A stretch of 64,000 nt of DNA from Candidatus Thiodictyon syntrophicum (GTDB lineage: Bacteria; Pseudomonadota; Gammaproteobacteria; Chromatiales; Chromatiaceae), in contig NZ_CP020370.1 in assembly GCF_002813775.1 (NCBI RefSeq), positions 3,125,501 to 3,189,500 on the forward strand, read 5' to 3'. Positions 7,979 through 56,170 of the stretch are shown here, piece after piece (position 1 is the stretch's first letter; each line of letters starts with the position of its first letter). Under the pieces are notes generated by a model that was not told the DNA's origin, made no database searches, and saw only the letters and a program-made list of their open reading frames with translations. Both the position numbers and the translations under genes were made by a program.

Positions 7979-8176
7979 CGAGTCAACAACAAGCTAAACC
8001 CATATCGTTGTCGTTGTCGTAATCGTAATCGTAATCGGAGAAGCGATGCACTCTAGGGCGCGAGAGAATTCGGGACGCTATGATAACCTCGATTACGAAA
8101 ACGACAACGACAACGAAAACCGCGCTAGCGGCAGTCCCTGACGGACTTGTTTGACCTGTTACTAAGCGATCCCTTA
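7979..8176 (+). repeat. Dispersed GTTGTC inverted-repeat element, copy A
   Basis: This copy of about 198 bp lies between the DUF29 gene and bioA. Order: left terminal repeat (ends AAGCTAAAC at about 7999), (GTTGTC)n then (GTAATC)n arm at 8005-8036, core 8037-8088 (GGAGAAGCGATGCA ... GATAACC), opposite-strand arm 8090-8116 (GATTACGA, then CAACGA units), and a right end GGACTTGTTTGACC ... to about 8176. The two arms pair as a long hairpin. The same left end follows the stop codon at 42486 and the same core occurs at 33544, 42538 and 56118-56170. Confidence 0.85.
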
Positions 8177-8184
8177 ATTCTTCC

Positions 8185-9471
8185 ATGGACATCGATCAAG
8201 TCCTCGCCATCGACCAAGCGCACGCCTGGCACCCCTATACCTCGACCCGCGACCGGGACCCCGTCTACCCGGTGCGCTCGGCCCAGGGCTGTCGGCTGCG
8301 TCTGATGGACGGTCGCGAGTTGATCGACGGCATGTCCTCCTGGTGGTGCGCCATCCATGGCTACAACCATCCGGTGCTGAACCAGGCGGTGCGCGATCAG
8401 CTCGGGTCCATGGCGCATGTGATGTTCGGGGGCCTGACCCATGAGCCGGCCGCGCGCCTGGTCAGGCACCTGGTGGACCTGACCCCGGAGCCGCTCCAGC
8501 ACGTCTTTCTGTGCGACTCGGGGTCGGTCGCGGTCGAGGTGGCGATCAAGATGGCGCTCCAGTTCTGGCAGGCCCAGGGGCACGGAGGACGCCACCGGTT
8601 GATGACCGTGCGCGGCGGTTACCACGGGGATACCTTTCACGCCATGTCGGTGTGCGACCCGGGCTCCGGGATGCACCGCCTGTGGGGTGCGGCGCTGCCG
8701 CAACAGGTCTTTGCCCCGGTCCCGGCTGGCCGCTTCGGTGAGCCCTGGGAGCCCCGTCACATCGCCGTCTTCGCCGACCTGATCGCGCGCCACCGCGATG
8801 AACTGGCGGCGGTGATCCTCGAGCCCATCGTCCAGGGCGCCGGGGGGATGCGCTTCTACTGCGCGGACTACCTGCGCGAGGTTCGCGCCCTGTGCGACCG
8901 CCATGGCGTGCTCTTGATCGCCGACGAGATCGCCACCGGCTTCGGCCGCACCGGGACCCTGTTCGCCTGTGAACAGGCCGGGATCAGTCCAGACATCATG
9001 ACGGTCGGCAAGGCCCTGACCGGCGGCTATCTGACGCTGGCCGCGGCCATTGCGAGCGAGCAGGTGGCCGACGGCATTGCGGCCGGTGATCCGGGGGCCT
9101 TCATGCACGGCCCGACCTTCATGGCCAATCCGCTGGCCTGCGCGGCGGCGAATGCGAGCATCGAACTGCTGTGCGCGGGTGATTGGCGGGGTGCGGTCGC
9201 GCGCATTGAGGCGGCACTGACGGAGGGGCTGGCGCCCTGCCGCGGGGTGCCCGGGGTGGAGGACGTGCGGGTGCTCGGCGCCATCGGGGTGGTGGAGCTG
9301 CAGGCGCCGGCGCCGATGCGGCCGATCCAGGCGCGCTTCGTGGATTTGGGGGTCTGGGTCAGGCCCTTTGGGCGCCTGATTTATCTCATGCCGCCCTATG
9401 TGATCGACCCCGCGGACCTCAACGCGCTCTGTCGGGCGGTGGTGCAGGTGGTTCGCGACCGGGGCTGGTGA
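8185..9471 (+). CDS. bioA: Adenosylmethionine-8-amino-7-oxononanoate aminotransferase
   Basis: BioA (428 residues, typical length) is a class-III PLP aminotransferase that makes 7,8-diaminopelargonic acid from KAPA using S-adenosylmethionine as amino donor, in biotin synthesis. Evidence: HAWHPYTS and the GMSSWWCAIHGYNHP block specific to BioA, DEIATGFGRTG (PLP-ring Asp), and the Schiff-base lysine in TVGKALTGGYL near residue 275. No other bio gene is in the window. The start ATG at 8185 lies just beyond repeat element copy A, so the element is in or near its promoter. Confidence 0.95.
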   Translation: MDIDQVLAIDQAHAWHPYTSTRDRDPVYPVRSAQGCRLRLMDGRELIDGMSSWWCAIHGYNHPVLNQAVRDQLGSMAHVMFGGLTHEPAARLVRHLVDLTPEPLQHVFLCDSGSVAVEVAIKMALQFWQAQGHGGRHRLMTVRGGYHGDTFHAMSVCDPGSGMHRLWGAALPQQVFAPVPAGRFGEPWEPRHIAVFADLIARHRDELAAVILEPIVQGAGGMRFYCADYLREVRALCDRHGVLLIADEIATGFGRTGTLFACEQAGISPDIMTVGKALTGGYLTLAAAIASEQVADGIAAGDPGAFMHGPTFMANPLACAAANASIELLCAGDWRGAVARIEAALTEGLAPCRGVPGVEDVRVLGAIGVVELQAPAPMRPIQARFVDLGVWVRPFGRLIYLMPPYVIDPADLNALCRAVVQVVRDRGW

Positions 9472-9513
9472 GGGTAGGGCTGGGGGGCGACCAGACGTTC
9501 TCACGGACCGGGC

Positions 9514-9574
9514 GTCGTTGTCGTTGTCGTAATCGTGGTCGGATTATTCGACAACGACAACGACAACGACAACG
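9514..9574. repeat. Hairpin-only copy of the GTTGTC element (copy E)
   Basis: The GTCGTTGTCGTTGTCGTAATC arm is followed by a short loop and a GATTATTCGACAACGACAACG return arm. The core and terminal repeats of the larger copies are absent. It lies between the convergent genes bioA and the RRM-protein gene, where the hairpin could end transcription in both directions. Confidence 0.75.
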
Positions 9575-9637
9575 TACCAGGGATCTCGGTCACCACATCA
9601 GTTCTGATCGCACCCCAGGGCCGACCCCCGGGTCGAC

Positions 9638-10126
9638 TCAGGTGAAGGCCCTCAGATCGGGGCCGGTCTCGATGAGGGCGGGGGCGGTCGGGGTCGACCT
9701 GACCAGGTCGATCCTGAGGTGTTCGCGGCGTCGTTCCACCAGGGGGCGCGCGACCACGGTACCGGACCCGCTGGCCTCTTGTTGGCGCTGACGATGCTCG
9801 CCCCAGGGGGAGCGCTGGCGATAGCGGCGGACCTCGATTGGACTGTCATGTAGCGTCCTGCCATTCAGAACCCGGATCGCCAGCATGGCAAGGCGCGCGG
9901 GCCGGACCTCGATCAGTCCATGATACTCGGTCGTACCGGTCGCCAGGTCGGTGATACGCATGATGCTGGCGTTGGCGCAGATGTTGACGAAGGGTAGGGT
10001 ACGCACGCCGACCTCACGCAGTGCGACGCGCACGAAGGCCTGCAAGTCCTTGCGGCTGGTATCAGGAGGGAGGTTGCGTAAGAAGAGTGCGACCGACCCG
10101 GTCTTTCCGCCCATGATGCCGCTCAT
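9638..10126 (-). CDS. RRM-domain RNA-binding protein
   Basis: The protein has 162 residues with one RNA-recognition-motif fold: RNP2-like VALFLRNLP near residue 13, then HGLIEVRPARLAMLAIRVLNG and the final strand SPIEVRRY near 104. A basic, polar tail of about 55 residues follows (PWGEHRQRQQEA). Bacterial RRM proteins are probable RNA chaperones, but no target is known here. It starts at ATG 10126 (or at Met5, 10114). Its promoter region abuts the right end of a decayed IS607-like element. Confidence 0.7.
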   Translation of the reverse strand: MSGIMGGKTGSVALFLRNLPPDTSRKDLQAFVRVALREVGVRTLPFVNICANASIMRITDLATGTTEYHGLIEVRPARLAMLAIRVLNGRTLHDSPIEVRRYRQRSPWGEHRQRQQEASGSGTVVARPLVERRREHLRIDLVRSTPTAPALIETGPDLRAFT

Positions 10127-10133
10127 AAACGTC

Positions 10134-10156
10134 TGAGATAATATTCACTTATCTCA
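10134..10156. repeat. Small stem-loop at the tnpB right end
   Basis: TGAGATAA and TTATCTCA form an 8-bp stem with a 7-nt loop between tnpB and the RRM gene. It may be the transposon's right-end hairpin or part of the RRM leader; the sequence alone does not decide. Confidence 0.5.
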
Positions 10157-10163
10157 AGCGTAT

Positions 10164-10904
10164 TCACGCCGTCAACGCCAGCGCGGCCGAAACCGTCTTA
10201 CCTGACTCTTGCGTGCGTTTAACGTCCGGCTTGAGCGCGTCCAGACGATCCAACCCATAACGATCGAGATTCCTGGCGGCGTCGAGGTCGCGGTCCATGA
10301 CGCTGCCGCAGTCGCATTCCATTGTCCGCTGAGCGAGCAGCATATCATGAACCTGCCCGCAGGCGTGGCACATCTTCGAGGACGGGAAGAATCTGTCCGC
10401 GATGACGACGGTCACGCCGCGCCATGCGGCCTTGTACTCAATCTGCCGCCGCAGTTCGCCGAACCCTGCATCGGAAATGGAACGTGCGAGACTGCGGTTT
10501 CTAACCATCCCTGAGACGTTCAGGTCCTCAATGGTGATGACCTGATAGGTGCGGGTCAGCTGGTCGGACAGTTCGTGCAGAACCGCGCGACGCTTCTTGA
10601 ACTGCGGGTAGCCGGGATTCTTGGCCTTCGCCTTCACCCGCCGGAAGAAGTGCTGGTAGGCGCGATCGAGGTCGTCAATCGCATTGCGCGTCACCCGACT
10701 GGAGACGTCGGAGTACCACGGAAACTCAACGCGCAGGACCGCCATGTAATACTGATAGGCTGCGGCCTTCGACCACTTGACGCCCGGTTGGCTGAAGTGG
10801 GCCAGCAGTTGGTTGTAGCAATGCCGCCGCGCACCGCATGACTGATTGAGGTACGTTGCCTGTTCAGGCGTCGGCCGCAACTCAATCTTGTTGGCTATCA
10901 GCAT
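10164..10904 (-). pseudogene. tnpB: TnpB-type transposon nuclease with internal deletion
   Basis: The reading frame is open but short (246 residues from ATG 10904; TnpB is usually about 370-420). The N-terminal helix-rich domain (MLIANKIELRPTPEQATYLN ... YPQFKKRR) is joined directly to AVLHELSDQL. The stretch that should carry the RuvC-I Asp is missing. Still present are the RuvC-II Glu (ITIEDLNVSGM), a zinc finger (CHACGQ ... CDCGS) and the RuvC-III Asp (DRDLDAARNL). With one catalytic Asp gone, an active RNA-guided nuclease is unlikely. A serine-recombinase fragment lies upstream, indicating an IS607-type element. Confidence 0.85.
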
Positions 10905-11088
10905 GGTAAAGCCCAAGGTCGTCGGCAATTACAGCGGCGGTTGCTTGGCGTTTGGCGAGCATCTGGCGGTCCAAGTCGGCCTTCTGGTCGTGGCTCGACA
11001 CCCGGGCGTAGCAGACGGTCGGCGCGTCGGCGTCACCGATGGCTGTCAGGTCGGCCATCGAGTAGTACCGTGCGCTCGGCTGCCCCGG
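10882..11088 (-). pseudogene. tnpA: IS607-family serine recombinase (TnpA) fragment
   Basis: From ATG 11058 the frame reads MADLTAIGDADAPTVC, then YARVSSHDQKADLDRQ, the conserved catalytic N-terminal block of IS607 TnpA (nucleophile Ser in ARVSS). The frame is open upstream (RYYSMADLTAI resembles the end of the HTH domain) and stops at 10882-10884 after about 58 codons, so most of the catalytic domain is lost. It overlaps the tnpB start, the normal tnpA-tnpB order. Confidence 0.75.
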
Positions 11089-11095
11089 GCCTCCA

Positions 11096-11287
11096 TTATA
11101 GCGCCCGCACCGCCAGGATGAGCAGGATGACCAACAGCACCACGGCGCCCAGCGGCAGAAGTGCGGCCGCCCAATCGCCCGCCCCAGCCTTGGTGCCGCG
11201 TTCCTGCCACTGCTTGTACGCCGGCCACAGACGCACCAGCAATAGCACCAGGACGGCTGCCATCGCGACCTTCAGAAACAGTTCCAT
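11096..11287 (-). CDS. Small two-helix membrane protein
   Basis: This 63-residue protein has hydrophobic segments at about 4-20 and 43-62, separated by a polar linker (YKQWQERGTKAGAGD). ATG 11287 is preceded by GGAG in the complementary strand. It lies in line with, and 87 bp downstream of, the YccA-type gene, so it may be co-transcribed. I do not recognise the family. Confidence 0.55.
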   Translation of the reverse strand: MELFLKVAMAAVLVLLLVRLWPAYKQWQERGTKAGAGDWAAALLPLGAVVLLVILLILAVRAL

Positions 11288-11374
11288 GGGGTTTCACTCC
11301 AGGTGTCGATGACCTGGCTGACGGCCCCCGGCAGTGCGCCGGGGGCCGTCAGCGCCGGTTTCGCTCACGGCCGA

Positions 11375-12043
11375 CTAATCGTCGCCGAGGATCCCCAGCA
11401 ACTGCAACAGGCTGATGAACAGGTTGAAGATGCTCAGATAGATGCTGTAGGTCGCCATGATGTAGTTGGTCTCCTCACCGCGGGCGATGCGGCTGGTGTC
11501 CCACAGGATCATGGCGCTCATCAGCAGGATCATGGCGGCGGAGATGGCGAGCGACAGGGCGGGGATGGCGAAGAAGAGGTTCGCGAGCATCGCAATCAGC
11601 AGCACCATCATGCCGGCGAACACGAAGCCGCCCAGGAAGCTGAAGTCACGCCGGGTGGTCAGGGCATAGCCGGAGAGCCCCAGGAAGATCGCCGCGGTGC
11701 CGCCGAAGGCCATGGCGACGGTCTCGGGTCCGTGGGGCAGCGCCAGGTAGATGCTTAAGATCGCCCCCAGCCCGAACCCCAGGAGGCCGGTGATCAGGAA
11801 GATGACGCCGATGCCGGCGGACGAGTTGGCCGTCTTGGGCAGCACGAAGATGCCGAGCACCATGGAGACGAGCACCGCCCCCATGTAGACCATCGGCGGC
11901 ATGTGCAGGGCCATGGACAGCATGGCGGTCAGGGCGCTGAAGCCCAGGGTGGCCGCGAGCAGCAGGTAGGTGTTCTTGAGAACCTTGTTGGCCGCGACCG
12001 CCTCCGGGGCGCCGCGCAGCAGGGTATAGTCGGGGTTGGCCAT
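11375..12043 (-). CDS. yccA: Bax inhibitor-1 / YccA family membrane protein
   Basis: The protein has 222 residues and seven predicted hydrophobic segments, with the family's charged C-terminal stretch (SAMILWDTSRIARGEETNYIMATYSIYLSIFNLF). E. coli YccA (219 residues) interacts with the FtsH protease; a similar inner-membrane role is inferred. I chose ATG 12041-12043 (MANPDYTLLRG); the longer frame to 12214 has no membrane or family signal. A tRNA-Ser(UGA) gene lies 220 bp upstream, as serT lies near yccA in E. coli. Confidence 0.88.
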   Translation of the reverse strand: MANPDYTLLRGAPEAVAANKVLKNTYLLLAATLGFSALTAMLSMALHMPPMVYMGAVLVSMVLGIFVLPKTANSSAGIGVIFLITGLLGFGLGAILSIYLALPHGPETVAMAFGGTAAIFLGLSGYALTTRRDFSFLGGFVFAGMMVLLIAMLANLFFAIPALSLAISAAMILLMSAMILWDTSRIARGEETNYIMATYSIYLSIFNLFISLLQLLGILGDD

Positions 12044-12264
12044 GATGGTCTTGCTCCTGGTTGAGGTTAGGTGGTGAGGCCGGTCAAGTCGCCGCGGTGG
12101 GCAGCGTGTCAGACCCGGGGACAAAAGCCGAGTTCCGCGAAGGATACCGGACGCCAAGCCGCAGGCAAAGCCTTGGGTGTCAGCGCGGATTCGGTTATCC
12201 TGGTAGCCCCGCACGTTGGGCTGATCGGACGCGGCACAAGGGGCGGGGTTTCCCGGTTGCGTTA

Positions 12265-12352
12265 GGAGAGGTGGCTGAGCGGCTTAAAGCGGCGGTCTTG
12301 AAAACCGTTGAGGAGCAATCCTCCGGGGGTTCGAATCCCTCCCTCTCCGCCA
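12265..12352 (+). tRNA. serT: tRNA-Ser (anticodon UGA)
   Basis: The gene is 88 nt with encoded CCA. Acceptor GGAGAGG (12265-12271) pairs with CCTCTCC (12342-12348), followed by discriminator G and CCA (12350-12352). The anticodon loop CTTGAAA gives UGA. A long variable arm (GTTGAGGAGCAATCCTCC region) and the T loop GGTTCGAATCC fit a class II tRNA for serine. Confidence 0.97.
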
Positions 12353-12683
12353 ATAAGTTATTGATAAACATCGAGTTTTTATACCAGTATTCGGCGCAAT
12401 AGGTCAGCCTGCTGAAGCCTTGACCTACCGGTCCCGGCGCCCCGGCGGCGGCCGACGCGCTCGCGTGACAGTCGCCCGGCGCCGCTTTGACGCGGCCCGG
12501 CAAGGGCAAGGGCCCTGTCTATCCGTGGCTGTGCCTGGCGCGCGTGGCAATTGTCCTGCCGGATTACCAAGATGTCATGCGGAGAGACTGGGGGTCGGGT
12601 TGGGCGCGCGTGGCTCAGCGCTTCAGACAGAAACAGTCCCATAACGTGCGCCGTAACCCGACATCCCACGACGGGGCCTCGGG
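12353..12683. other. Gap after tRNA-Ser
   Basis: These 331 bp hold no gene I can support. Short ORFs on both strands show no family signal. Confidence 0.5.
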
Positions 12684-13424
12684 TTACGCTATGCTGACTC
12701 TTGCCCCTATGTTAGAACGGCGCCGGAGCAGCGGCAGCAGTCCCATCGGCAATAGGCTGACCGTGGCAGGCGCGGGGACCGCGGGCACTTCCAACTCCTC
12801 GCTGAAGGCATATAGCGAAAACTCCTCGGTCTTGGTCCGGTACGAGCCGAACAACCAACCTGCCGACGGGATCTGAGCATGGCCGACACCGGTGGAAGAC
12901 GAAGTCCCGCCCAATGCGCCTGAGCCCAGTGATTCACCGTGGGTGCCAGTTCCTGTCCAAACCATCTCAGCACGCAATGTTTCGTTCTGAGTCATGGTAA
13001 TGGTAGACAGTAAAGGGTGGGTTTCGGTGTCGAAGAGGTCCGAAACGGCGGCTGCCACCATAGTGCCATCGGGTAAGAAGACCGGGGCATCGGTAGTGAC
13101 GAGTGCACTGATGTTGGTCTGCGCTGAGGTCCCGGGTGTGGAAGCGATAGCACGCCATTGAATATCCAGCGACTGAAAAACCCCTGTTGCATCGGCCTGG
13201 ATATCGACGAAGCCGTTGTAGTCCTCTATGGTGACGAAGGTGGCCGGCGTGACACCGACTGTGACGAAGACGTAATGATACCGGTCCCCAGGCTGCAGGC
13301 CGGGTATCGGCTTGACCGGCTGGAGCAGGAGCGCCGCCTCCGGGATGCCCGGCGCAAAGATGGCGCCCGCAAGGATCAGCACTGCTGCGAGCCGTGGTTT
13401 CATCGGGCGATGAGTGTCGAACAT
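12684..13424 (-). CDS. PEP-CTERM anchored secreted protein
   Basis: The protein has about 246 residues. A signal peptide (MKPRLAAVLILAGAIFAPGI) opens it, and a beta-rich, Thr/Ser-rich ectodomain follows. The C-terminal sorting tail is VPAPATVSLLPMGLLPLL plus RRR, a variant of the VPEP-hydrophobic-Arg signal read by exosortase systems. I place the start at ATG 13422-13424 because TCCTC (complement GAGGA, 13434-13438) lies nine bases upstream. The ligand or role is unknown. Other PEP-CTERM tails occur at 58936 and, as a remnant, at 54086. Confidence 0.75.
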   Translation of the reverse strand: MFDTHRPMKPRLAAVLILAGAIFAPGIPEAALLLQPVKPIPGLQPGDRYHYVFVTVGVTPATFVTIEDYNGFVDIQADATGVFQSLDIQWRAIASTPGTSAQTNISALVTTDAPVFLPDGTMVAAAVSDLFDTETHPLLSTITMTQNETLRAEMVWTGTGTHGESLGSGALGGTSSSTGVGHAQIPSAGWLFGSYRTKTEEFSLYAFSEELEVPAVPAPATVSLLPMGLLPLLRRRSNIGARVSIA

Positions 13425-14129
13425 TTGCATGGTTCCTCAAAGCTGCGTGATGATGGTGGGACGGAGAGGAAATTCAACGATTTCGAGACCGGATCTCGCC
13501 TTCATCTTAGCTGCGGGAAAGGTGCCTGGCAAGACGGCTTGGCCCGGGCAGGCGATCTGGGCGAGACAAAAGGGGCCACCATTTAGCTGACCCCGGTCAA
13601 TAGCACGGCACGCTTGCTCGTGCCTGAACACGCCTTTCGTCATGCCGCGAAGCGCTGTCTCGTTACCGTAGGCGCGCCGTCGGTTCTCGTTGGGCGGAGA
13701 CGGATTAACTCCGATCCGCACCAGCCACTTTTCTGGATCAAGGCACTGGGGCTGTTCCCATGGGGAAAAGACGCCCGGCCCCTGGTTCATGTGAACCCCA
13801 GAAAATCGTCAGTGCCCTGCCAAGGTCCAAGTGGGCCGTGGCGGGCGGGGTGGGGGGCGGGCGCGCGGGACCCCCAAACAGGTCCAAGCGCGCCCGCCCC
13901 CCACCCCGCCGGGCCACGGGTTCACAGAGCGCGGGCTCAGCGCCTGGCGGGCGCCGTCCAACCCCTTGGTGGCTCGGTGGCAAGGGCGTCTCGGTCACGA
14001 ACAATCCTCCGTGGCGTTGGGCGGGGATGCGTCGGTGCCCGATCCAGGCTCAGTGGCTCGCCGCCAGCCTCTTGTTCCAGGTCGCCGACGCAGACCCAAA
14101 CCGGTTCGGGCGAAGGCCCGATCGACAGC
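13425..14129. other. Gene-poor stretch with a long GC hairpin
   Basis: There is no supportable gene. The stretch holds the 22-bp perfect inverted repeat listed separately; the long ORFs here are GC-driven shadows. Confidence 0.5.
13844..13910. repeat. Perfect 22-bp inverted repeat, G-rich / C-rich arms
   Basis: The arm at 13844-13865 (GGCGGGGTGGGGGGCGGGCG plus two bases) is the exact complement of 13889-13910, with a 23-nt spacer. It is next to an IS110 fragment. GGTCCAA occurs just outside the left arm and again in the spacer. It could be a strong terminator-like hairpin or a repeat end. Confidence 0.8.
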
Positions 14130-14460
14130 AAAGCGTTGGCGCTCAGGGATTGGCCGCCGCTGCGCGCGAGCTGATTCTGGATCGAAACCAGGTTGGCCGT
14201 GCGCTGCTGGATCAGGCGCAGACGCCGCCGCAGCAAATCGCGCACGGCGCGTTCCTCTTTGGGGTAGATGTAGCCCTCGGCCGGCAACCCCAGACGCAGC
14301 AACTTCGCCAGCCAGCAGGCGTCCGAGTCGTCGTCGCTGTATTTCAGCCCACTGTACAGTGTGATCGCAGTCGTGTTGGCCAGGTGCACCGGGTAGCCAG
14401 CCGCCATCAGGGCGTCGACCGGCCAGTACCAGTTGTAGGTCGACTCCTGCCGCCGGGTCT
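14130..14460 (-). pseudogene. IS110-family transposase fragment
   Basis: The frame reads ESTYNWYWPVDALMAAGY, then VHLANTTAITLYSGLKYSDD, DACWLAKLLRLG and YIYPKEERAVRDLLRRR, the central part of an IS110 DEDD transposase. The N-terminal segment with the first catalytic Asp and the whole C-terminal transposase_20 domain are missing. After QSLSAN the frame no longer resembles the family. Confidence 0.85.
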
Positions 14461-14816
14461 CCGGCGCGGGTTCTTGCCTACCTTAACTGTAGGCCGGCGG
14501 GTGGGGTCGGCTAGATGATCTTCATGCTCGAGTTAATTTTGGCCTTGCCGTCCCGAAATGTATGCGAGCCTGGCCCTTTTGCAAACAAACTCGGGCATGG
14601 TGATCTAATAGCTTGCGAAGGCAGGCTGGGGCCTCGGACGCATGCAGGTCGACGGTGACGGCTGCGCCTGCGCCCCGATTACCCGATCAACCAGCTCAAA
14701 CCGGGGGCTTAAGTGGTGGCCAGGGCCATGCCGCACTGTGGGATGATCCCGCCCCGCCTGCAATCGCCACGCGCTATACTGGTAAGCGCGATCCCTGTCC
14801 CACGGAGTCAGCGACC
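14461..14816. other. Leader of the first Rpn-type gene
   Basis: These 356 bp hold no gene. The last bases before the ATG (CGGAGTCAGCGACC) are also found before the second copy at 20421, so the repeat unit includes a piece of leader. Confidence 0.5.
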
Positions 14817-15737
14817 ATGCCAACACGCAAGCTCATCAGCTTCGACTGGGCCATGAAACGGCTGCTGCGCAGCAAGGCCAACTTCGGCATCCTCGAGGGC
14901 TTTCTGAGCGAGCTGCTGCGCGAGGACGTACAGATCATGGAGGTCCTGGAATCGGAATCGAACCGTGACACGGCCGACGACCGCTCCAACCGCCTGGATC
15001 TCAAGGTGCGCAACCACCGCGGCGAACTGGTCCTGATCGAGGTCCAATATGAACGCCAACACGATTATCTGTCGCGGATGCTCTACGGCAGCGCCCGGAC
15101 CTTAGTCGAGCACCTGGATGCCGGTGAGCCCTATGCGGACCTGGTCAAGGTCATCTCAGTCAACATCCTCTATTTCGACCTGGGCCACGGCGAGGACTAT
15201 ATCTACCGGGGTACCACGCGCTTCCATGGTTTGCACAAGCACGACGAACTGGCCTTGAGCCGCGCCCAGCGCCAACTGTTCCCGGGGCGCGAGGGGACCC
15301 ACGAGCTGTTCCCGGAGTATTATCTCATCAAGGTCGAGCGCTTCGACGACTGCGCCCGCGACACCCTCGACGAATGGGTCTATTTCCTCAAGCACGAGGC
15401 GATCCAGGACGGCTTCTCGGCCAAGGGCCTGCGCGAGGCCAAGGAGAAGCTCGACGTGCTCAAGCTCGCGCCCGCGGAGCGCGCCGCCTACGAACGCTGG
15501 CAGGACGACCTGCACCTGCAGGCGAGCCTGGTGGCGTCGAACTATGGGCTGGGCAAGATCGAGGGGCGTGAGGAGGGGCGCGAAGAGGGGCGCGAGGAAG
15601 GGCGTCAGGAGGGACTTGAGAAGGGTCGCGAAGAGCGCACGCTGGAGATCGCCCGGGCGATGAAGTCCAACGGTGTGGCAGCGAGCCTCATCGCCCAGTC
15701 CACCGGCCTGGACCCAGAGGTCCTTGCCGGCCTTTGA
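14817..15737 (+). CDS. Rpn-family PD-(D/E)XK nuclease / putative transposase, copy 1
   Basis: The protein has 306 residues and belongs to the Rpn/'recombination-promoting nuclease' group. A PD-(D/E)XK-like core is visible: Asp in NRLDLKVRN and the E-x-Q pair in LVLIEVQYERQ. The family block FHGLHKHDEL follows. A C-terminal tail of charged GREEG repeats (about residues 248-275) precedes ERTLEIARAMKSNGV and AQSTGLDPEVLAGL. Start ATG 14817 (MPTRKLISFDWAMKRLL) is shared with copy 2. Rpn proteins act in recombination and, in some cases, as phage-defence toxins; here the role is inferred. Confidence 0.85.
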   Translation: MPTRKLISFDWAMKRLLRSKANFGILEGFLSELLREDVQIMEVLESESNRDTADDRSNRLDLKVRNHRGELVLIEVQYERQHDYLSRMLYGSARTLVEHLDAGEPYADLVKVISVNILYFDLGHGEDYIYRGTTRFHGLHKHDELALSRAQRQLFPGREGTHELFPEYYLIKVERFDDCARDTLDEWVYFLKHEAIQDGFSAKGLREAKEKLDVLKLAPAERAAYERWQDDLHLQASLVASNYGLGKIEGREEGREEGREEGRQEGLEKGREERTLEIARAMKSNGVAASLIAQSTGLDPEVLAGL

Positions 15738-17327: not shown

Positions 17328-17561
17328 GACAGAGGACCTCTCTTGGAAAGGGTTCGGCGCAGCGTGCGAGCACCAGCCGGCGCCTCTGACTGCCCGAGCA
17401 GCAGGCCGCAGGGTGCAGGCACGCGAGGCCGCAGCATAACCGCAGCCCAACCGACGGCGCTACTCTCCGCCCCCACCGACCGGTACAGGGCGGCTGCACA
17501 ATCCGCTCTCTCGCCCGACCGGCCACTGACCGGATGCCGCCCGCGGCGGACACTTGCTATG

Positions 17562-17845: not shown

Positions 17846-17875
17846 CGGACCCCTGCTCAACCCCGGTAACCGCCT

Positions 17876-19965: not shown

Positions 19966-19972
19966 CCGCCGG

Positions 19973-33518: not shown

Positions 33519-33715
<197 letters not shown>

Positions 33716-41548: not shown

Positions 41549-41944
41549 ATGCGTATCGCCGTGACCAGCCAGAACTTCAAGACCATCACCGGCCATGCCG
41601 GCAAGGCGCGCCGTTTCCTCGTGTATGAAACGGACGCCAGCGGCACCCCGCCCCAGGAAATCGACCGGCTCGACCTGCCCCGGGAGCTGTCGATCCACGC
41701 CTATCACGGCGAGGACCATCCGCTCTTCGGGCTCGGACTCCAGGCCCTGGTGACCCAGGGGGCCGGGCAGGGCTTCATCGAGCGCCTGGCGCGCCACGGC
41801 ATCCTGGTCCATGCGACCAGTGAGGCCGATCCACTGGTCGCCGTGGTGCAGGTGGCCACCGGCCAACCGCTCGCCGCGGCCCTGCCGCACGACCACGACC
41901 ATCAGGCGGAACACCAGGTTTTGGTTCAGATCCGGGAGTCATGA
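41549..41944 (+). CDS. NifX/NifB-like dinitrogenase cofactor-family protein
   Basis: The protein has 131 residues with the fold of the NifX/NafY family: MRIAVTSQNFKTITGHAGKA, HPLFGLGLQALVTQGAGQG, FIERLARHGILVHATSE and a His-rich end (PHDHDHQAEHQ). The family binds iron-molybdenum or other metal cofactors; stand-alone members of unknown role are common. Its TGA overlaps the next ATG (41941-41944), so the pair is coupled. Confidence 0.78.
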   Translation: MRIAVTSQNFKTITGHAGKARRFLVYETDASGTPPQEIDRLDLPRELSIHAYHGEDHPLFGLGLQALVTQGAGQGFIERLARHGILVHATSEADPLVAVVQVATGQPLAAALPHDHDHQAEHQVLVQIRES

Positions 41945-42485
41945 ACGACCCCATCCCCAGTCTCGACGATACCCCCTCGCGCCTCGGCCGCGTCATGCTG
42001 TTCGCGGCCTGGGTCGTGGGGTTCGCCCTGTTGGTGCTGTTCTTCAAGGGCTTTATCGACCGCCAGGCCAACCCCAACCCGGAGCCGGTCGCCGGCGTCG
42101 GTCAGACCGGGGCGCCCCAGGTGGTGTTGCGCCGCAACCGTGCCGGTCATTATGTGGCCGGCGGGCGGATCAACGGGCAGCCGGTGGTCTTCATGTTGGA
42201 TACCGGGGCCACGGATGTGGCTCTACCCCTGCCCCTGGCCCGGCGCCTGGGTCTGGCGTTGCGCCCGGGCGGTTTGAGTCAGACCGCCAACGGGACGGTC
42301 CAGACCTGGGCCACGCGCCTGGACAGCGTGGACCTGGGGGGGCTGGTGGCCCGCAACCTGCGCGCCAGTGTCCTGCCCAACATGGCGGGGGACGAGGTCC
42401 TGCTGGGGATGAGTTATCTGAAGCAACTGGAGTTGGTCCAGCGTGGCGATACCCTGACCCTGCGTGCGCACCGGGGGTCTCAATA

Positions 42486-42486
<1 letters not shown>
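41941..42486 (+). CDS. Membrane-anchored retropepsin-like aspartic protease (TIGR02281 type)
   Basis: The protein has 181 residues. An N-terminal anchor (VMLFAAWVVGFALLVLFF) is followed by the protease fold: GQPVVFMLDTGATDVALP with catalytic Asp-Thr-Gly, and LLGMSYLKQLELVQRGDTL at the end. The family is usually periplasmic. The TAA stop (42484-42486) is at the boundary of repeat element copy C, and the last residues (AHRGSQ) extend beyond the usual family end. Confidence 0.85.
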
Positions 42487-42716
<230 letters not shown>

Positions 42717-45383: not shown

Positions 45384-45389
45384 CGATCC

Positions 45390-46774: not shown

Positions 46775-46787
46775 GAGGACCGTCCCC

Positions 46788-47162: not shown

Positions 47163-47264
47163 CCAATCGTAAACGCCCTGGTGCGCTGGAGCAGGAGTAC
47201 CTGAGAAATCATGGTGAAGGTACCTTCAGTTCAGTCTTTGTGAGAGCAATTGCCGGATTTAGGG

Positions 47265-49697: not shown

Positions 49698-49901
49698 TTT
49701 CGTCTCGACGGCTGAGCGGGGCGACGGTCATTGTCCGGCTTTTCGGTCCCGGCGACCATAGGCTGTCGGGGCGTCGCACGACTCGCCGAAGCGCTCGGCA
49801 GCGTTGGGGAAAGGTCGCGGCGGTGGCGCTTGCCCGGCAGCTTGCGGTCCCGTCGGCGCCCGAGTACCATCGCCCGCATCTAGATCGCTGAAATGCTGGC
49901 C

Positions 49902-50129
49902 ATGTCTCTCCTCGACCGCATCACCATCGACACCGAGATCTGTCACGGCAAACCCTGCGTTCGGCACATGCGCTGGCCGGTCGAGGCGGTGCTTGATCTG
50001 CTCTCGGCCGGTATGACCGCGGCCGAGATCCGGGCGGACCATCCCGAGCTTGAGTCCGAGGACCTGGCCGCCTGTCTGCAATACGCCCGGCTCGTCGTCT
50101 CGGGCGAGACCCTCGCCCACGTCGCCTGA
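49902..50129 (+). CDS. DUF433 antitoxin-like protein without partner
   Basis: The protein has 75 residues: LLDRITIDTEICHGKPCVRH, then VEAVLDLLSAGMTAAEIRAD, LESEDLAACLQYA. This is the DUF433 pattern, normally the antitoxin half of pairs with a DUF5615 PIN-like toxin. No such gene follows; the next gene is HicB-like. ATG 49902 is preferred over 49893. Confidence 0.8.
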   Translation: MSLLDRITIDTEICHGKPCVRHMRWPVEAVLDLLSAGMTAAEIRADHPELESEDLAACLQYARLVVSGETLAHVA

Positions 50130-50171
50130 TGCGCGTCCAATCCAATCCCGTCCCGACCAGAGCCAACCGCC

Positions 50172-50411
50172 ATGCTGCAAACCTACACAGCACGATACAC
50201 CTGCCTTCACGGCGGCTACATGGGTCAGTTGATCGACTGGCCTGAGGTCGTCACTGAAGGCGCCAATCTGGAAGAGTGCCGGGCAATGCTCCGCGATGCG
50301 TTGCGCGAGATGGTTCTGGCATACCAAGACCTCGGTCGAGAGATTCCGGTCGGCAACGCCTTGCTTGAACAACTTCCAGTGGAGTTGGAGCTTGTCCGTA
50401 AAACGGCGTGA
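50172..50411 (+). CDS. HicB-family antitoxin-like protein without visible HicA
   Basis: The protein has 79 residues: YTARYTCLHGGYMGQLIDWP, EVVTEGANLEECRAMLRDAL, the RNase H-like HicB N-domain. There is no separate HTH or ribbon-helix-helix domain. A HicA toxin ORF is not found on either side. Confidence 0.72.
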   Translation: MLQTYTARYTCLHGGYMGQLIDWPEVVTEGANLEECRAMLRDALREMVLAYQDLGREIPVGNALLEQLPVELELVRKTA

Positions 50412-50667
50412 TCTGGTGAGCTAGCAGGCGGGGCTGGCTCCGAAGTATTGAGATTCAGTTGGGGCAAGCCCGCGCTGAATGCGCAGCGGTTGCGCCACCC
50501 CCGCGGCTGGCGCTATGGCGGATCGCCTGGCGGGCATCGGCGCGTGCTGCGACCTTTCCATGCCCTCACCGTGTCCGCCGTGGCGCAACTGCGTGCGCCT
50601 TCCGCTGGTCTGCCCCACCGCCAGCAGACCAGCGCACCTTGCGGTCCGGCGAGACCGGCGCTCGCCC

Positions 50668-53256
50668 CTACTCGGCCGGGGGGATGGCGTCGAATTCGGC
50701 CTGGGTGCCGTGGCCATCCTGGAGCCAGGCAGTGCGGAGCGCCTGGAGCGCCGGGGCGATTCGGTTGCGGTAGTCGTAGGGGAAATCCGCTTCGGTGACG
50801 ACGCTCTCGGTCGCCCGCACCGAGGCGATGGCCAGTCTCAGGTCCGGCCAGCCCCCGCCCATGCCTTCCCGGGCCCAATACGCCACTCCAAGGTTGAAGC
50901 GGGTCATGGCCCACTTCGTCGGCTGGGCCTCGCGGGTTCGGACCTCCAGGGCCAGCTTGTAGGCCGCGATGGCCTTGCCGAGGTTCTCGGCCCGGTCGCC
51001 GGTGGGCATGTCCCGCCAAGCGTTGCCGAGGTTGTTCTGGGTCAAGGCCCAGTCCGCCGGGTGGGCCTCACGGGTCGAGACCTCCAGGGCCAGGGTGTAG
51101 GCCGCGATGGCCTTGCCGAGGTTCTGCGCCCGGTCGCCGGTGGGCATGAACTGCCAGGCGATGCCGAGGTTGTTCTGGGTTGAGGCCCAGTCCACCGGGT
51201 GGGCCTCGCGGGTATGGACCTCCAGGGCCAGTGCGTAGGCCGCGATGGCCTTGCCGAGGTTCTCCGCCCGGTCGCCGGTGGGCATCTGCGCCCACGCGTT
51301 GCCGAGGTTATTCTGGGTCATGGCCCAGTCAGCCGGGTGGGCCTCGCGGGTAAAGACCTCCAGGGCCAACCCGTGGGCCGCGATAGCCTTGCCGAGGTTC
51401 TCTGCCCGGTCCCCGGTGGGCATGTCCGCCCGGGCGAGGCCCAAGTTGTTCTGGGTGGTGGCCCAGCCCGCCGGGTGGGCCTCGCGGGTGCGGACCTCTA
51501 GGGCTAGCCCATAGGCCGCGATAGCCTTACCGAGGTTCTTCGCCCGGTCGCCGGTAGGCATGAACAGCCAGGCGTTGCCGAGGTTGTTTTGAGTCATGGC
51601 CCACTCCTCAGGGTTGGCCTCGCGGGTTTGGATCTCCAGGGCCAGCCCGTAGGCCGCAATGGCCTTGCCGAAGTTCTCCGCCCGGTCGCCGATGGGCATA
51701 TCCGCCCAGGCGAGGCCGAGGTTGTTCTGGGTCCCGGCCCACTCCGCCGGGTGGGCCTCGCGGGTCCAGGTGCCTTGGGCCTGGGTCAGGAGCGAGATGG
51801 CCTCGCGCTGATGGGCGGCAATGTCCCCCAGGCGGGCCTGCACATGGGCGATGGCTGCGTTGTTCATCGCGGCGGGCTCCTCGGGCCGCAGCGCCAGCGC
51901 CTGCTCAAAGGGCCCGATGGCCCGGTCGAACTCACCTGCGTTGTACCAATTGCCGCCCTCCAGGGTCAGGAGCCGGAAGGTCTCGGCGAGTGGGTCACGC
52001 TTCAGGTCCTGGATCAGCCGGTCGGCCTCGGCGTGCTGCTTGAGCGCAATGGCGGCCACCGCCTGCTGCTCTGTGTTGCCGCGCTCGGCAAGCTCTCGGG
52101 CCTTGGCGATCAACTCGGGGGGGAGCTGGCGTTGGGTGGGGTCCTCCCCGGCCTGTTTGGGGGTTAGGGCCTCGCGCAATTGGGCCTCGATGGCGGCGAG
52201 CCGGGCGTCGGACCTCTGCTGGCCGGCCTCCAGGGTGCCCTGGGTGCGCTGGTGCAGGTGCCAGCCGGAGAGCCCGACCGCGACCACCAGCAGAGCCACC
52301 AGGGCCAAACGCCCATGGGTGATCCCGTGCAGTCGGCGGGAGGCGCGGCCCTCGGCGCGCACGGCGCGGTAGACGCCGTCCAGACGCTCGGCCTGCGCCG
52401 CCATGCGCGCGCGGATCTCGGCCGCGTCGGCGCCGGCGACGGGCAGACCGAGGCTCAAGGTGACCCGCACGGACTCCAGCGCCCGGGCGTTGTCGTCGGT
52501 GCTGGGCAGGCCCGCGGCGCCCTGGGCCAGGAGTTCTCCGGCAATGTCGAGCCACATGCCATAGGCGGCCTCGCCGCGGTGGGCGAAGTCGCGCTTGAGC
52601 GCCTGGCGCAGGGCCTCGCCGAAGCGCCGCGCGATGGCTTGGCGCACCCTGGGGCCGGTCGCGGGGTCGGCGAACTCGGGGGCCTCGTCCAGGTCGTCGG
52701 GGTGCAGCAGGGCCAGCAGGTCCGCCACCTGGTCGTCGCTCAGGGCCGGGCGCTGGGGGTCGCGCACGAAGGCCAGCAGCCGGTCGTCCCGGATCTCCGG
52801 CAGCCGCTCCCGGGCGTGCTCCTGGGCGGCGATCTCCGGCCAGTCGCGCTCGGCGCGCTCGGCCAGGCGGTGGACGGTGCGGGCGTCGGCGTCCGGTAGC
52901 TCGGGCTCGCACGCGCGCAGCGTCATGCCGATGCTCTGGCCCACCAGTCGGGTCAGGGCATGGTTGCGAAAGAACTCCCCGGCGCTCGGCAGGCGCGCGT
53001 CCTCCCAGGTGCGGTAGGCGTCGTAGGCGCGGTTGCCGAGCACCGCGGCGACGAGGTTGAGCGCGGCGAAGCAGGTGAGCGAGAGCCAGCGCCAGTCCTG
53101 GCCGAAGGGCCGGAATTCCGCCTCCCCCGTGGCCAGGAGGGCGAAGACGGCGAGCGCAAGCCCGGTGCCCAGGGCGGCGGCGAGCGCCTGGAGGCACAGG
53201 CGGCTCCAGCGGGGCAGTCGGCTGTAGCGGCGGGCAAGCTCGAATGGCACGGACAT
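50668..53256 (-). CDS. Membrane protein with TPR-like 46-residue tandem repeats
   Basis: The protein has 862 residues from ATG 53254-53256 (MSVPFELARRYSRLP). Two hydrophobic segments near the N-terminus (LCLQALAAALGTGLALAVFA; WLSLTCFAALNLVAAVLG) precede a soluble helical region, then a further span (RLALVALLVVAVGLSGWHL, near 318-336), a TPR-like stretch and six full plus one partial repeats of WAxTQNNLGNAWxxMPTGDRAENLGKA type. The 138-bp DNA period is exact (GCCGAG at 51025, 51163, 51301). The repeats probably scaffold protein binding; no catalytic domain is seen. Confidence 0.75.
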   Translation of the reverse strand: MSVPFELARRYSRLPRWSRLCLQALAAALGTGLALAVFALLATGEAEFRPFGQDWRWLSLTCFAALNLVAAVLGNRAYDAYRTWEDARLPSAGEFFRNHALTRLVGQSIGMTLRACEPELPDADARTVHRLAERAERDWPEIAAQEHARERLPEIRDDRLLAFVRDPQRPALSDDQVADLLALLHPDDLDEAPEFADPATGPRVRQAIARRFGEALRQALKRDFAHRGEAAYGMWLDIAGELLAQGAAGLPSTDDNARALESVRVTLSLGLPVAGADAAEIRARMAAQAERLDGVYRAVRAEGRASRRLHGITHGRLALVALLVVAVGLSGWHLHQRTQGTLEAGQQRSDARLAAIEAQLREALTPKQAGEDPTQRQLPPELIAKARELAERGNTEQQAVAAIALKQHAEADRLIQDLKRDPLAETFRLLTLEGGNWYNAGEFDRAIGPFEQALALRPEEPAAMNNAAIAHVQARLGDIAAHQREAISLLTQAQGTWTREAHPAEWAGTQNNLGLAWADMPIGDRAENFGKAIAAYGLALEIQTREANPEEWAMTQNNLGNAWLFMPTGDRAKNLGKAIAAYGLALEVRTREAHPAGWATTQNNLGLARADMPTGDRAENLGKAIAAHGLALEVFTREAHPADWAMTQNNLGNAWAQMPTGDRAENLGKAIAAYALALEVHTREAHPVDWASTQNNLGIAWQFMPTGDRAQNLGKAIAAYTLALEVSTREAHPADWALTQNNLGNAWRDMPTGDRAENLGKAIAAYKLALEVRTREAQPTKWAMTRFNLGVAYWAREGMGGGWPDLRLAIASVRATESVVTEADFPYDYRNRIAPALQALRTAWLQDGHGTQAEFDAIPPAE
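50930..51780. repeat. 138-bp coding tandem repeats
   Basis: Six units encode the 46-residue TPR-like repeats. The consensus TTGCCGAGGTTGTTCTGGGT is repeated every 138 bp with few differences, so copy number is likely to vary by recombination. Confidence 0.88.
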
Positions 53257-53449
53257 CCCCGGGCGGCGCGGGGCCGCGGCTTCGGTGGGCGGGCAGGGTC
53301 TCGTCATTATGCCGAGTTGGGGCTGGGGTTGCAGCCCGCGTTGGGCCGAACGCATAGCGGTTCCGGCTCGCGGCGGCGCGGGTCCAGGCGGATCGCCCGC
53401 TGGAGGCCTTGATGATCACCCCGGCCACCCTGCCGGACTTGAGGTCGCT

Positions 53450-53503
53450 GGTCCGCACAGCGGACCCTACGGCTCTGCGCCCGTAGGGTCCGCTGTGCGG
53501 ACC
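53450..53503. repeat. Perfect 23-bp inverted repeat
   Basis: 53450-53472 (GGTCCGCACAGCGGACCCTA plus CGG) is the exact complement of 53481-53503, with an 8-nt loop. One arm alone occurs at 2770. Confidence 0.9.
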
Positions 53504-53924
53504 ATAGACCTCGCAGTCGGCCCATTGGCCTGATCATGACTGGTGGGCATCCGCCCTCCGGCTATCGACTACGGCGATCGACCGGCTCACCCCCAACGGT
53601 TGACCCGCATCGCACCAGGGACTAGAGCCTGGTCAGGCTGACTAGACCACAGGAGAAGCCATGAACAGCACTGGCGCAGAGGAGCCCTCCCGTCGTGGGA
53701 ATACAAGCTATTGGCAGCTTCAGGATGCCAAGCCCGCGTAGGGCGAAACGCGCATCGGTGCCGCCACCCGGCGGCTCTCGTAATGGCGGATCGCCCTGTC
53801 GGCCTCCGCCCTACGGGCTTGACGGCGATCACGGTATCTACAATCGACGATCACGCCAACCCACATCAGTTTCGATATCCCCGGGATCGGCCTTCACTGC
53901 GATTAAGTTAAGCCGCTCGGCTAC

Positions 53925-54020
53925 TGGGAGCGCCGCACCCCAGTGCGGCGCGGCCTCTGGCGAACCCACACCGGCGGGGTTTCCTGCGAGATCGCGCCGC
54001 ACTGGGGTGCGGCGCTCCCA
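53925..54020. repeat. Perfect 27-bp inverted repeat
   Basis: 53925-53951 (TGGGAGCGCCGCACCCCAGT plus seven bases) is the exact complement of 53994-54020, with a 42-nt spacer. One arm alone is at 28599. Confidence 0.9.
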
Positions 54021-54085
54021 GGCCTGGCCGGACTGGAAATGAGGCTTAACTGAATGGCAGTTCCGGATCGGCCCTGGGGCCCCGA

Positions 54086-54290
54086 TCAGCGGCGCGCCTT
54101 CGCGTCGAGGCGCCGGACGATCAGCACGACGAGGCCGAGCCCTAAGATCCCGTGCGGCTCGGGGACCACGAGGCTGCGCTGATTGATGCCGAAGCCCTGG
54201 TCAGGCAGCGCGCCGTATTCATAGCGATAAACGATCCGCTCGGTGTTGCGGGTGTCGGAGCGCACGTCGAGAGGCGAGCAGGACACTGCG
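54086..54290 (-). pseudogene. C-terminal remnant of a PEP-CTERM protein
   Basis: The complement reads RIVYRYEYGALPDQGFGINQ and then LVVPEPHGILGLGLVVLIVR with basic residues to the stop: a VPEP sorting signal, hydrophobic helix and basic end. The ectodomain and signal peptide are not present. Confidence 0.65.
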
Positions 54291-54408
54291 AAACGGATGG
54301 ACGCGCATTGGGCTCCTGGCCTGGCGGCTTGGTCTGTACGAGGTGGTCGGCGACAAAGGGTTGTCAACCCGGATCGGCGCCGGGCCACGCCGGGGACAAC
54401 CTCGATTG

Positions 54409-55734
54409 TCACCCGTAGGCCGCCGTCAATCCATTCAAATCCACCCGTGCCCGCAGGCGGCGACACAGCATGAAGGTGCCGACGAACTTGCGGTGCAGGA
54501 AGAAGGTCGCCGGGTCGGGGGCGTGGCCGAAGGCGTCCTGGAAGAAGAGGTCCCGGCCGCCGACATAGATCCGCTCGAAGAGATCGGAGGTCCCGAAATC
54601 ATAGGGTCCCGAGTGGCGCAGCGGCTCGCCGGTGAGTGCGATCAACCCGGCGATGCTCGCGACCTGTTCCGGGGAGGCGCCAGGGTCCAGATAGCCCAGG
54701 GCCAGGGCGCATTGGCGCACCGTTTCCGTGTCGCCGACGACGGACGCCTGCAGCATCTGGCGGTAGTACCCGACCAGCGCGGGGGCAACCCGCTGGGTGG
54801 CACCGAAATCGAGCAGGACCAGCTTGCGGGTCTCGGCCTGGTAGAGAAAATTGCTGTAGTTGGGATCGGTCTGCACCAGCGCGAAGTCGAACAGCTCGCG
54901 CAGCAGCAGGTGGACCAGGAGGGTGGCGGCACGGTCACGCTCCACCTGGCGAAACGCCTGGCCGGTGAGTTGATCGACCGGGATGCCGTCGGCGAAGTCC
55001 ATGGCCAGCACCCGGGTGCTGGAGAGGTCCCGGTGCACCTTGGGTACCGAAAAGTCGGGGTCGTCGCCGACGAGTGCCCCGTAGGCCTCCAGCGCATCGG
55101 CCTCGGCCACGTAATCGGCCTCCTGGTGGAGTTGGTGGCGGGCCGCGGTCAGGACCGGCTCCAGGTTCAGGCCCTTGGGCGCGAGCCCCAGGGTGCGCCC
55201 CAGGAAGGCGAAATTGTCCAGATCGCTGTCGATGCTCTCGCGCACCCCGGGAAACTGGATCTTGATGGCCAGGTGCCGGCCGTCACGGGTCTCGGCGCGA
55301 TGCACCTGCCCGATGGAGGCGGCGGCCATGGGGGTGAAGTTGAAGCGGCGAAAACGCTTGTCCCAGTCGGCCCCCAGTTCGCCCGAGAGGACCTCGTTGA
55401 CCTGCCCCAGCGGCATCGGCTGGGCGCGGTCGCGCAGGCTCGCCATGATCTCGGCGGCCTCCGGGGTAAGCAGGTCGGAGCCGTCCAGGGACATGAGTTG
55501 ACCCATCTTCATCGCCGCCCCGCGCATCCGCGCCAGGCGATCGGTGAAGCGTTGCGTGTGCGCGGCGGAGAGTTGGACCCGGCTCATCCCGCCGTCGCGG
55601 TTCAGCGCCAGTTCGATCAAGCCGCGCACGCCCACCCCGGCCGCCAGGTCGCCGGTAGCGCGGCCCAGGTGCCAGAGTCGGGCCAGGCGTTTGCTGGGGA
55701 CGGCCAGGCCGCCGGGGAGTTGGGGGTTGGCCAT
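54409..55734 (-). CDS. ABC1/ADCK (UbiB-like) atypical kinase
   Basis: The protein has 441 residues. ABC1 hallmarks are the K-x-G-Q loop in AAMKMGQLMSLDG (about 74-86), LAIKIQFPGVRESIDSDLDN, QTDPNYSNFLY and LVLLDFGATQRV. Relatives (UbiB, ADCK) support ubiquinone synthesis or lipid handling. The alternative is a general stress ABC1 protein. ATG 55734 begins MANPQLPGGLAVPSK. The gene is alone and its C-terminus overlaps the scrap at 54086 only in other frames. Confidence 0.88.
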   Translation of the reverse strand: MANPQLPGGLAVPSKRLARLWHLGRATGDLAAGVGVRGLIELALNRDGGMSRVQLSAAHTQRFTDRLARMRGAAMKMGQLMSLDGSDLLTPEAAEIMASLRDRAQPMPLGQVNEVLSGELGADWDKRFRRFNFTPMAAASIGQVHRAETRDGRHLAIKIQFPGVRESIDSDLDNFAFLGRTLGLAPKGLNLEPVLTAARHQLHQEADYVAEADALEAYGALVGDDPDFSVPKVHRDLSSTRVLAMDFADGIPVDQLTGQAFRQVERDRAATLLVHLLLRELFDFALVQTDPNYSNFLYQAETRKLVLLDFGATQRVAPALVGYYRQMLQASVVGDTETVRQCALALGYLDPGASPEQVASIAGLIALTGEPLRHSGPYDFGTSDLFERIYVGGRDLFFQDAFGHAPDPATFFLHRKFVGTFMLCRRLRARVDLNGLTAAYG

Positions 55735-55957
55735 GGTGCGAGGCCCTCGAGAGGTGGTTGCAGGCCAGGTGGCCCATCAGTGGGCGCTAATATGCGGCCA
55801 CTGATGCCGATGCGCAATCCAGGCGCCGTCAAGGTCGACTCCTGGGGCTGGTGGACGTCGGCGGCGTCTGACACCGGCCGCTGCGGCAGGTCCGCGGGCA
55901 AGGCGGCGCTGCCTCGCGGGCCTCGCACTGCCGCCAGGTCAGGCGCCGCACCACCTC

Positions 55958-56014
55958 CTGGAGTCCAAGGCTTCAGCCTTGGAGGGGCGCCAAGGCTGAA
56001 GCCTTGGACTCCAG
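55958..56014. repeat. Perfect 25-bp inverted repeat
   Basis: 55958-55982 (CTGGAGTCCAAGGCTTCAGC plus five bases) is the exact complement of 55990-56014, with a 7-nt loop. A shorter relative is at 20174. It is directly upstream of repeat element copy D. Confidence 0.92.
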
Positions 56015-56030
56015 AAACAGAAGTTCAGCA

Positions 56031-56170
56031 GCGGTTCACGTATAAGTTAAACAATTTCTATAGAGACCGCGCATAGCGCCATTTTCGTTGTCGTTGTCGT
56101 TGTCGTTGTCGTAATCGAGGTTAGCGTAGCGCCCCGGATTCTCCTGTACCCCACAGAGCATCGCTTCTCC
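56031..56170 (-). repeat. Dispersed GTTGTC inverted-repeat element, copy D, truncated
   Basis: The element lies in reverse. Its outer end GCGGTTCACGTATAAGTTAA is at 56031-56050, the GTTGTC arm is at 56086-56112, and the core 56114-56170 ends at CATCGCTTCTCC. The second arm and terminal repeat are missing: the sequence jumps to the ATG of the cooC-like frame at 56171. Confidence 0.85.

What the first reader, a model, noticed from the sequence alone, without database searches (positions are those of the whole stretch)
7979..56170. Dispersed transposon-like element with (GTTGTC)n / (GACAAC)n hairpin arms: four larger copies and one mini-copy in 64 kb
Four copies (7979-8176, 33519-33715, 42486-42716, 56031-56170 reversed) share a core of about 55 bp flanked by hexamer arms that are reverse complements of each other and vary in number between copies. 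Outer ends of copies B, C and D resemble an imperfect terminal inverted repeat of about 23 bp that ends in TAAAC or CAAAC. A hairpin-only derivative is at 9514-9574. The combination of terminal repeats, conserved core and variable microsatellite arms is not one I can match to a known MITE, REP or BIME. The RNA would fold as a long stem with a structured top.
Basis: seen in the sequence. Interest (0 to 1): 0.75.

Follow-up and report, generated by a model that had tools for sequence, protein, structure and literature searches.

The report
Hairpin-armed mini-transposon in purple sulfur bacteria
The window holds four copies of an old, gene-less mini-transposon, present in roughly 150 copies or more in this purple sulfur bacterium; its ends resemble those of a known transposon family (ISAzo13), while its middle is an unusual hairpin made of short repeats that change in number.

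Summary
The element is a non-autonomous transposon (MITE), mostly 158-244 bp when both ends survive: 25-bp imperfect terminal inverted repeats, (GTTGTC)n / (GACAAC)n arms and a 56-bp core. The fetched stretches hold 169 core hits; the end pattern has 156 hits against 0 in the control. The ends resemble those of ISAzo13-family insertion sequences in related Chromatiaceae. Flanks follow C-TNA-G, which fits the 3-bp duplication reported for ISAzo13 (PMC10045372, passage), although only 7 of 38 copies keep an exact duplication. This genome has no ISAzo13 transposase over the Pfam cut-off; core copies are 82% alike on average, so the family looks orphaned and old. A relative shares copies with other arm repeat numbers. 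Four relatives lack copy C. In G168 and G172 similar ends and arms surround other apices. Copies lie between predicted genes, often at stop codons, largely as the target preference predicts. I found no compensatory change in arms or core, so a conserved RNA role is unsupported. New variant of a known kind.

The parts
7975..8173 (+). Copy A: left end 7975-7999, left arm 8007-8036, core 8037-8092, right arm to about 8120, decayed right end about 8149-8173
   Evidence: the upstream ORF 7532-7978 ends in TAG overlapping the left end
33520..33711 (+). Copy B: no left end; left arm, core from 33545, ten-unit right arm, right end 33687-33711
42483..42704 (+). Copy C: copy with both ends (left 42483-42507, right end finishing at 42704), core 42538-42593
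   Evidence: the gene junction lacks the element in G168, G169, G171, G172
56028..56170 (-). Copy D: truncated at the first base of the core (no left end, no left arm); core, right arm and right end present
9514..9573 (+). Mini-copy: left and right hexamer arms round a very short apex, no terminal repeats
   Evidence: short-apex relative L353

Best explanation
The element is a miniature inverted-repeat transposable element (MITE) with ISAzo13-type ends. It carries no gene. An ISAzo13-family transposase acting in trans would have cut at the two 25-bp ends (GTAACGAGTCAAGAACAAGTTAAAC and GGAACGGTTCACTAATAAGTTAAAC) and inserted it at C-TNA-G sites, duplicating 3 bp; insertions survived between genes, often at a stop codon (TAA and TGA fit TNA). 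Shown: the ends, their likeness to ISAzo13 elements of relatives, the target logo, the copy number, shared old insertions, and a gene junction without the element in relatives. Inferred: that the transposase worked in trans, that it has since been lost from this genome, and the 3-bp duplication in this genome, which is mostly eroded. The hexamer arms behave as microsatellites while the core drifts neutrally (change of arm length between orthologous copies is shown; slippage is inferred). In some copies the middle lies inverted relative to an end, plausibly by recombination between the arms (inferred).
For: End pattern 156 hits versus 0 control. The same pattern found elements in three relatives (G035, G059, G070). 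Both ends are seen round a PF07592 gene in G059 (L148) and in G172 (L300, about 1.49 kb, TAA on both sides), weaker in G170 (L301, 20 and 17 of 25); single ends beside PF07592 genes in G168, G171 and another G059 copy. Pfam E 1.6e-78 and 1e-85 for two G059 proteins. In G059, 6 MITEs with such ends that I read (of 9 pattern hits) all have identical 3-bp flanks (my reading). PMC10045372 states that ISAzo13 makes 3-bp duplications (passage). Flank logo C-TNA-G over 104 left and 65 right ends. Copy C absent at the orthologous junction in 4 relatives. Insertions shared with G170 in 7 of 8 aligned pairs, with arm numbers differing. Core identity to consensus 0.89-0.90 in all four end classes of 132 cores. 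1 of 169 core hits inside a predicted gene (home-made gene finder).
Against: In this genome only 7 of 38 copies with both ends have identical 3-bp flanks; among the 12 with TNA on both sides 7 agree against 4.5 expected (p 0.08). I read this as decay, since T and A of the target have drifted too. No autonomous element with the MITE's own ends was seen in the loci listed from 96 family genomes (up to 1 mismatch); IS ends match at about 19-22 of 25 by my count. Of 9 relatives, G169 and G079 have no PF07592 match, though G079 has 5 core hits. I saw no likeness between MITE and IS interiors, but ran no alignment of them. 37 of 169 core hits have neither end.
Confidence: 0.87

Rival explanations
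1. The arm-core-arm hairpin is an independent mobile unit (like REP/BIME moved by a single-strand transposase) that happens to sit inside ISAzo13-type MITEs in many copies.
For: 37 of 169 core hits have neither end, and many begin right at the arm. The middle is inverted relative to at least one end in 13 of 169. The arms recur in G168 and G172 with other apices.
Against: Core identity to consensus is the same with and without ends (neither 0.897, left 0.897, both 0.892, right 0.901), so no younger hairpin-only class shows. Right-side remnants stop at graded points, as in decay. A copy without left end and an inverted copy are shared with G170, so those states are old.
Confidence: 0.08
2. The hairpin is a selected RNA element at gene 3' ends (mRNA stability or termination) that spread as a MITE.
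For: 59 element sides lie within 10 bp of a predicted stop versus 12 of a predicted start. The target overlaps a stop in 30 of 132 sites (23%), far above the 6% for TNA sites outside CTNAG (226 of 3805 non-coding). Orientation between tandem genes is 72:42, p=0.006, one of several tests made. The consensus folds into one long stem.
Against: Among non-coding CTNAG sites 51 of 244 (21%) overlap a stop, close to the 23% seen. No covariation in 132 cores (paired 0.851 versus 0.852 shuffled). Arm lengths uncorrelated (rho -0.15, p 0.10, 122 copies). Copy C as DNA folds with z only -1.05.
Confidence: 0.08
3. Plain microsatellites or assembly artefacts.
For: The arms are simple hexamer repeats.
Against: Shared non-repeat core and ends with zero control hits; the same insertions in an independent MAG.
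Confidence: 0.01

Closest known systems
ISAzo13 family insertion sequences (PF07592 transposase)
   Same: Terminal repeats of the same design (GTAACGA.../GGAACGGTTCA...) and TNA flanks; 3-bp duplications as reported in PMC10045372
   Different: The element has no transposase; it carries hexamer arms and a 56-bp core
Bacterial MITEs such as Correia elements of Neisseria (recalled, not tested)
   Same: Short, gene-less, many copies, terminal inverted repeats, between genes
   Different: Interior built of variable hexamer arms; ISAzo13-type ends
REP/BIME sequences (recalled, not tested)
   Same: Intergenic hairpins in many copies
   Different: About 200 bp with terminal inverted repeats and a TNA target; no search for a RAYT transposase was made

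Membership tests
MITE | Short element without a transposase gene | tested here: met
   39 core hits have two ends of either orientation: 36 span 158-244 bp; three rows are longer (377 twice for one copy with a nested insertion, 364). Consensus interior is arms and core only
MITE | Terminal inverted repeats | tested here: met
   25-bp imperfect repeats, pattern 156 hits versus 0 control
MITE | Target site duplication | tested here: inconclusive
   7 of 38 exact here; 6 of 6 read by eye in G059 MITEs with such ends
MITE | High copy number and polymorphic presence | tested here: met
   169 core hits in fetched stretches; copy C absent in four relatives
MITE | Ends match an autonomous element | tested here: met
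   PF07592 insertion sequences in relatives; about 19-22 of 25 bases by my count, so related and not identical ends; no parent in the own genome
ISAzo13 insertion sequence | Encodes a PF07592 transposase | tested here: not met
   The element has none; the own genome has no match over the cut-off, three weak ones at 20.7 bits
ISAzo13 insertion sequence | 3-bp target duplication | tested here: inconclusive
   TNA at both flanks but mostly not identical; reported for the family in PMC10045372
REP/BIME with RAYT | Short palindrome mobilised by a RAYT transposase | not tested
   Size and terminal repeats argue against; no RAYT search made
Rfam RNA family | Covariance-model match at gathering score | tested here: not met
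   Only a tRNA in the window

The most novel reading that the evidence does not exclude
A modular mini-transposon in which ends and hexamer arms are kept across at least three genomes of the genus (own, G168, G172) while the hairpin apex is exchanged: 18 armed stretches of G168 and G172 have apices of 25-463 bp and only 3 of the 18 match the 56-bp core at 48 or better. Repeat turnover would renew the arms, making a self-renewing microsatellite hairpin whose apex is a landing site for other repeats.
Probability: 0.25. Interest if true: 0.6.

Novelty: new variant of a known kind. Interest (0 to 1): 0.42.

Why it matters
It ties a large repeat family in Thiodictyon to a definite transposase family and a target rule. 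The one paper that holds both ISAzo13 and MITE showed no such element in its passages. It also offers many hairpin-forming hexamer arrays with orthologues in a sister genome, useful for measuring repeat turnover in bacteria and possibly as strain-typing markers.

Tried and rejected
Four-helix-bundle (PF05635, 23S intervening sequence) origin: three genes in the genome, none with the core in the 800 bases that I printed for each; they lie beside or among heptamer-like arrays of another kind. A peptide reading of core and arm: no Pfam match. Insertion sequences with the MITE's own ends in the own genome: 26 of 30 fetched end hits had a core in the same stretch of up to 3 kb; in the other four (L070, L073, L074, L088) I saw no transposase in the parts that I printed. 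Plasmid collection: no match for copy C. Viral contigs: 0 exact core matches. Stop-codon targeting beyond target preference: not needed, but not fully excluded, since the comparison depends on taking CTNAG (21%) and not all TNA sites (6%) as the target; of the stop overlaps at defined ends, 14 were of the kind where the element's first G may complete TAG. Core covariation: none. Failed steps: a fuzzy-matching script timed out and was replaced by ungapped scoring; the alignment-fold script stopped with an error after an empty structure and was replaced by the consensus fold; the left-end and right-end models drifted into each other and were not used, only the core model was. Limits: the 169 core hits come from 134 stretches chosen from the listings, which were cut (40 scored places, about 100 listed in each other), so copies are missed; one copy with a nested insertion is counted as two core hits (931166 and 931309). 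132 of 169 core hits (score above 55) entered the alignment statistics. The 20 stretches were picked from hexamer matches, often paired ones, so they are not a fair sample; end scores there have no shuffled control. Literature searches, listings only, with nothing relevant that I recognised.

Full report
Setting. The window is G000:C1:3125501-3189500 of a genome of 7,738,984 bases in three contigs of 6,837,296, 416,864 and 484,824 bases. That fits Thiodictyon syntrophicum Cad16T (7.74 Mb in the start of an abstract; a plasmid pTs485 in a passage). In that paper a word search counted 0 for 'transpos', 'insertion sequence', 'MITE' and 'IS element'.

Observation. The four copies and the mini-copy are in the sequence. 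The 27 double-hexamer matches in the window all lie in those five places, against 0.12 expected. Rfam finds only a tRNA in the window.

Anatomy. From many copies the element reads: left end GTAACGAGTCAAGAACAAGTTAAAC, then ACACAATC, (GTTGTC)n, GTAATC, the 56-base core, GATTAC, (GACAAC)n, about 35 bases of right subterminal sequence, and right end GTTTAACTTATTAGTGAACCGTTCC. The right end read inwards is GGAACGGTTCACTAATAAGTTAAAC, an imperfect repeat of the left end. Genome counts: core pattern 152 versus 9 control, second core pattern 129 versus 0, end pattern 156 versus 0.

Census. From 340 listed hits I formed 174 places and fetched 134 stretches, which hold 169 core hits (one copy counted twice). 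Ends scored at 17 of 25 or better: both ends in normal orientation 35, left only 63, right only 21, neither 37, and 13 with at least one end inverted relative to the core. Mean core identity to consensus is 0.89-0.90 in all four end classes of 132 well-aligned cores; mean pairwise identity is 0.82. The 132 cores fall into 131 distinct sequences, 130 of them single. This looks like an old burst now decaying.

Ends and target. The bases outside both ends follow C-TNA-G. Exact 3-bp duplication survives in 7 of 38 copies; among the 12 with TNA on both sides 7 agree, against 4.5 expected when shuffled (p 0.08). So the duplication is only weakly visible here. In G059, elements of about 330 bp or more with such ends but another interior show identical 3-bp flanks in 6 of 6 that I read, of 9 pattern hits.

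Parent family. A search of 96 family genomes for the end pattern found it in 5, the own genome included. In G035 and G070 the end is followed by the 3' part of a gene whose product lies in full-length frames in G059; two of those proteins are PF07592, ISAzo13-type transposases. Both ends are seen round such a gene in G059 (L148) and in G172 (L300, TAA on both sides); in L148 the flanks are TAA and TTA, not identical. G170 has weaker ends (L301), and G168, G171 and another G059 copy show one end. Of 9 relatives, 7 have PF07592; G169 and G079 have none. PMC10045372 says ISAzo13 makes 3-bp duplications (passage). The own genome has no PF07592 match over the cut-off, only three weak ones at 20.7 bits.

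History. A core search of 210 genomes of the order found it in 6, all in the own genus: 117 in G000, 213 in G170, 5 in G079, 3 in G168, 1 each in G171 and G172; none in G169 or G035. A scan of genome contigs for an exact core pattern found 27 stretches, titled Thiodictyon or Lamprocystis. I aligned 8 of 13 locus pairs with relatives' loci of that scan, a Thiodictyon MAG whose contigs correspond to G170; 7 of the 8 share the insertion, and the eighth (L115/L275) aligns poorly. Arm numbers differ between orthologues, for example right arm 3 versus 10 units in L119/L160, while core and flanks largely agree. Copy C is present in G170 without its left end. In G168, G169, G172 and G171 the aligned blocks of the two neighbouring genes lie 57-90 bp apart, against 306-327 in the window, and the printed gap holds no arms; at 76-83% identity the exact empty site cannot be read. 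G035 has other sequence there. For copy A's locus the loci were fetched but not examined further.

Relatives with other apices. Of 20 stretches from G168, G171 and G172 chosen from hexamer matches, 18 (all from G168 and G172) have both arms, with 25-463 bp between them; 4 of 20 match the core at 48 of 56 or better (3 of those 18); left ends score 16 of 25 or better in 14 of 20 and right ends in 9 of 20. So ends and arms are wider spread than the core.

Function. 1 of 169 core hits is in a predicted gene (home-made gene finder). 59 element sides lie within 10 bp of a stop against 12 of a start. The target overlaps a stop in 30 of 132 sites (23%), like non-coding CTNAG sites (51 of 244, 21%) and well above other TNA sites (226 of 3805, 6%); so target preference largely explains it, if CTNAG is the real target. 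Orientation between tandem genes is 72:42 (p 0.006), unexplained. Arm lengths are uncorrelated (rho -0.15), and the innermost pairs GTAATC/GACAAC (24) beside GTAATC/GATTAC (55) show no compensation. Core pairing is 0.851 against 0.852 shuffled. Copy C folds as DNA with z -1.05; 28 of 200 shuffles fold at least as well. The consensus as RNA folds into one long stem.

Verdict. A MITE with ISAzo13-type ends and an unusual microsatellite hairpin interior: real, old, probably without function to the host, and not described in what the searches made here showed (listings and passages only).

Noticed in passing
L031, L032, L033 (own genome C1:5905385, 4301708, 5902804): Three PF05635 four-helix-bundle genes lie beside or among heptamer-like arrays (CCCTGAA-like or CCCTCAC-like).
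   Followed up: no
L077, about 1610-1750: Another element with ends like GGCCTTGATCAT...ATGATCAAGG is inserted inside the core of a copy; similar sequence stands in L070 and beside L084.
   Followed up: no
window 55957-56012: A long palindrome around GGAGTCCAAGGCTTCAGCCTTGG lies next to copy D, REP-like.
   Followed up: no
G059 loci L124, L128, L132, L136, L140, L143: MITEs of about 330 bp with ISAzo13-type ends but no hexamer arms, very alike, one with a further insertion; possibly recently active there.
   Followed up: partly
copies between tandem genes, own genome: Copies between two genes of the same direction lie in that direction 72 times and against it 42 times (p 0.006); no explanation.
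   Followed up: partly
window 42470-42490: The ORF before copy C (41941-42486) ends on a TAA inside the element, while G170 shows a TGA a little earlier (frame in G170 not checked).
   Followed up: partly
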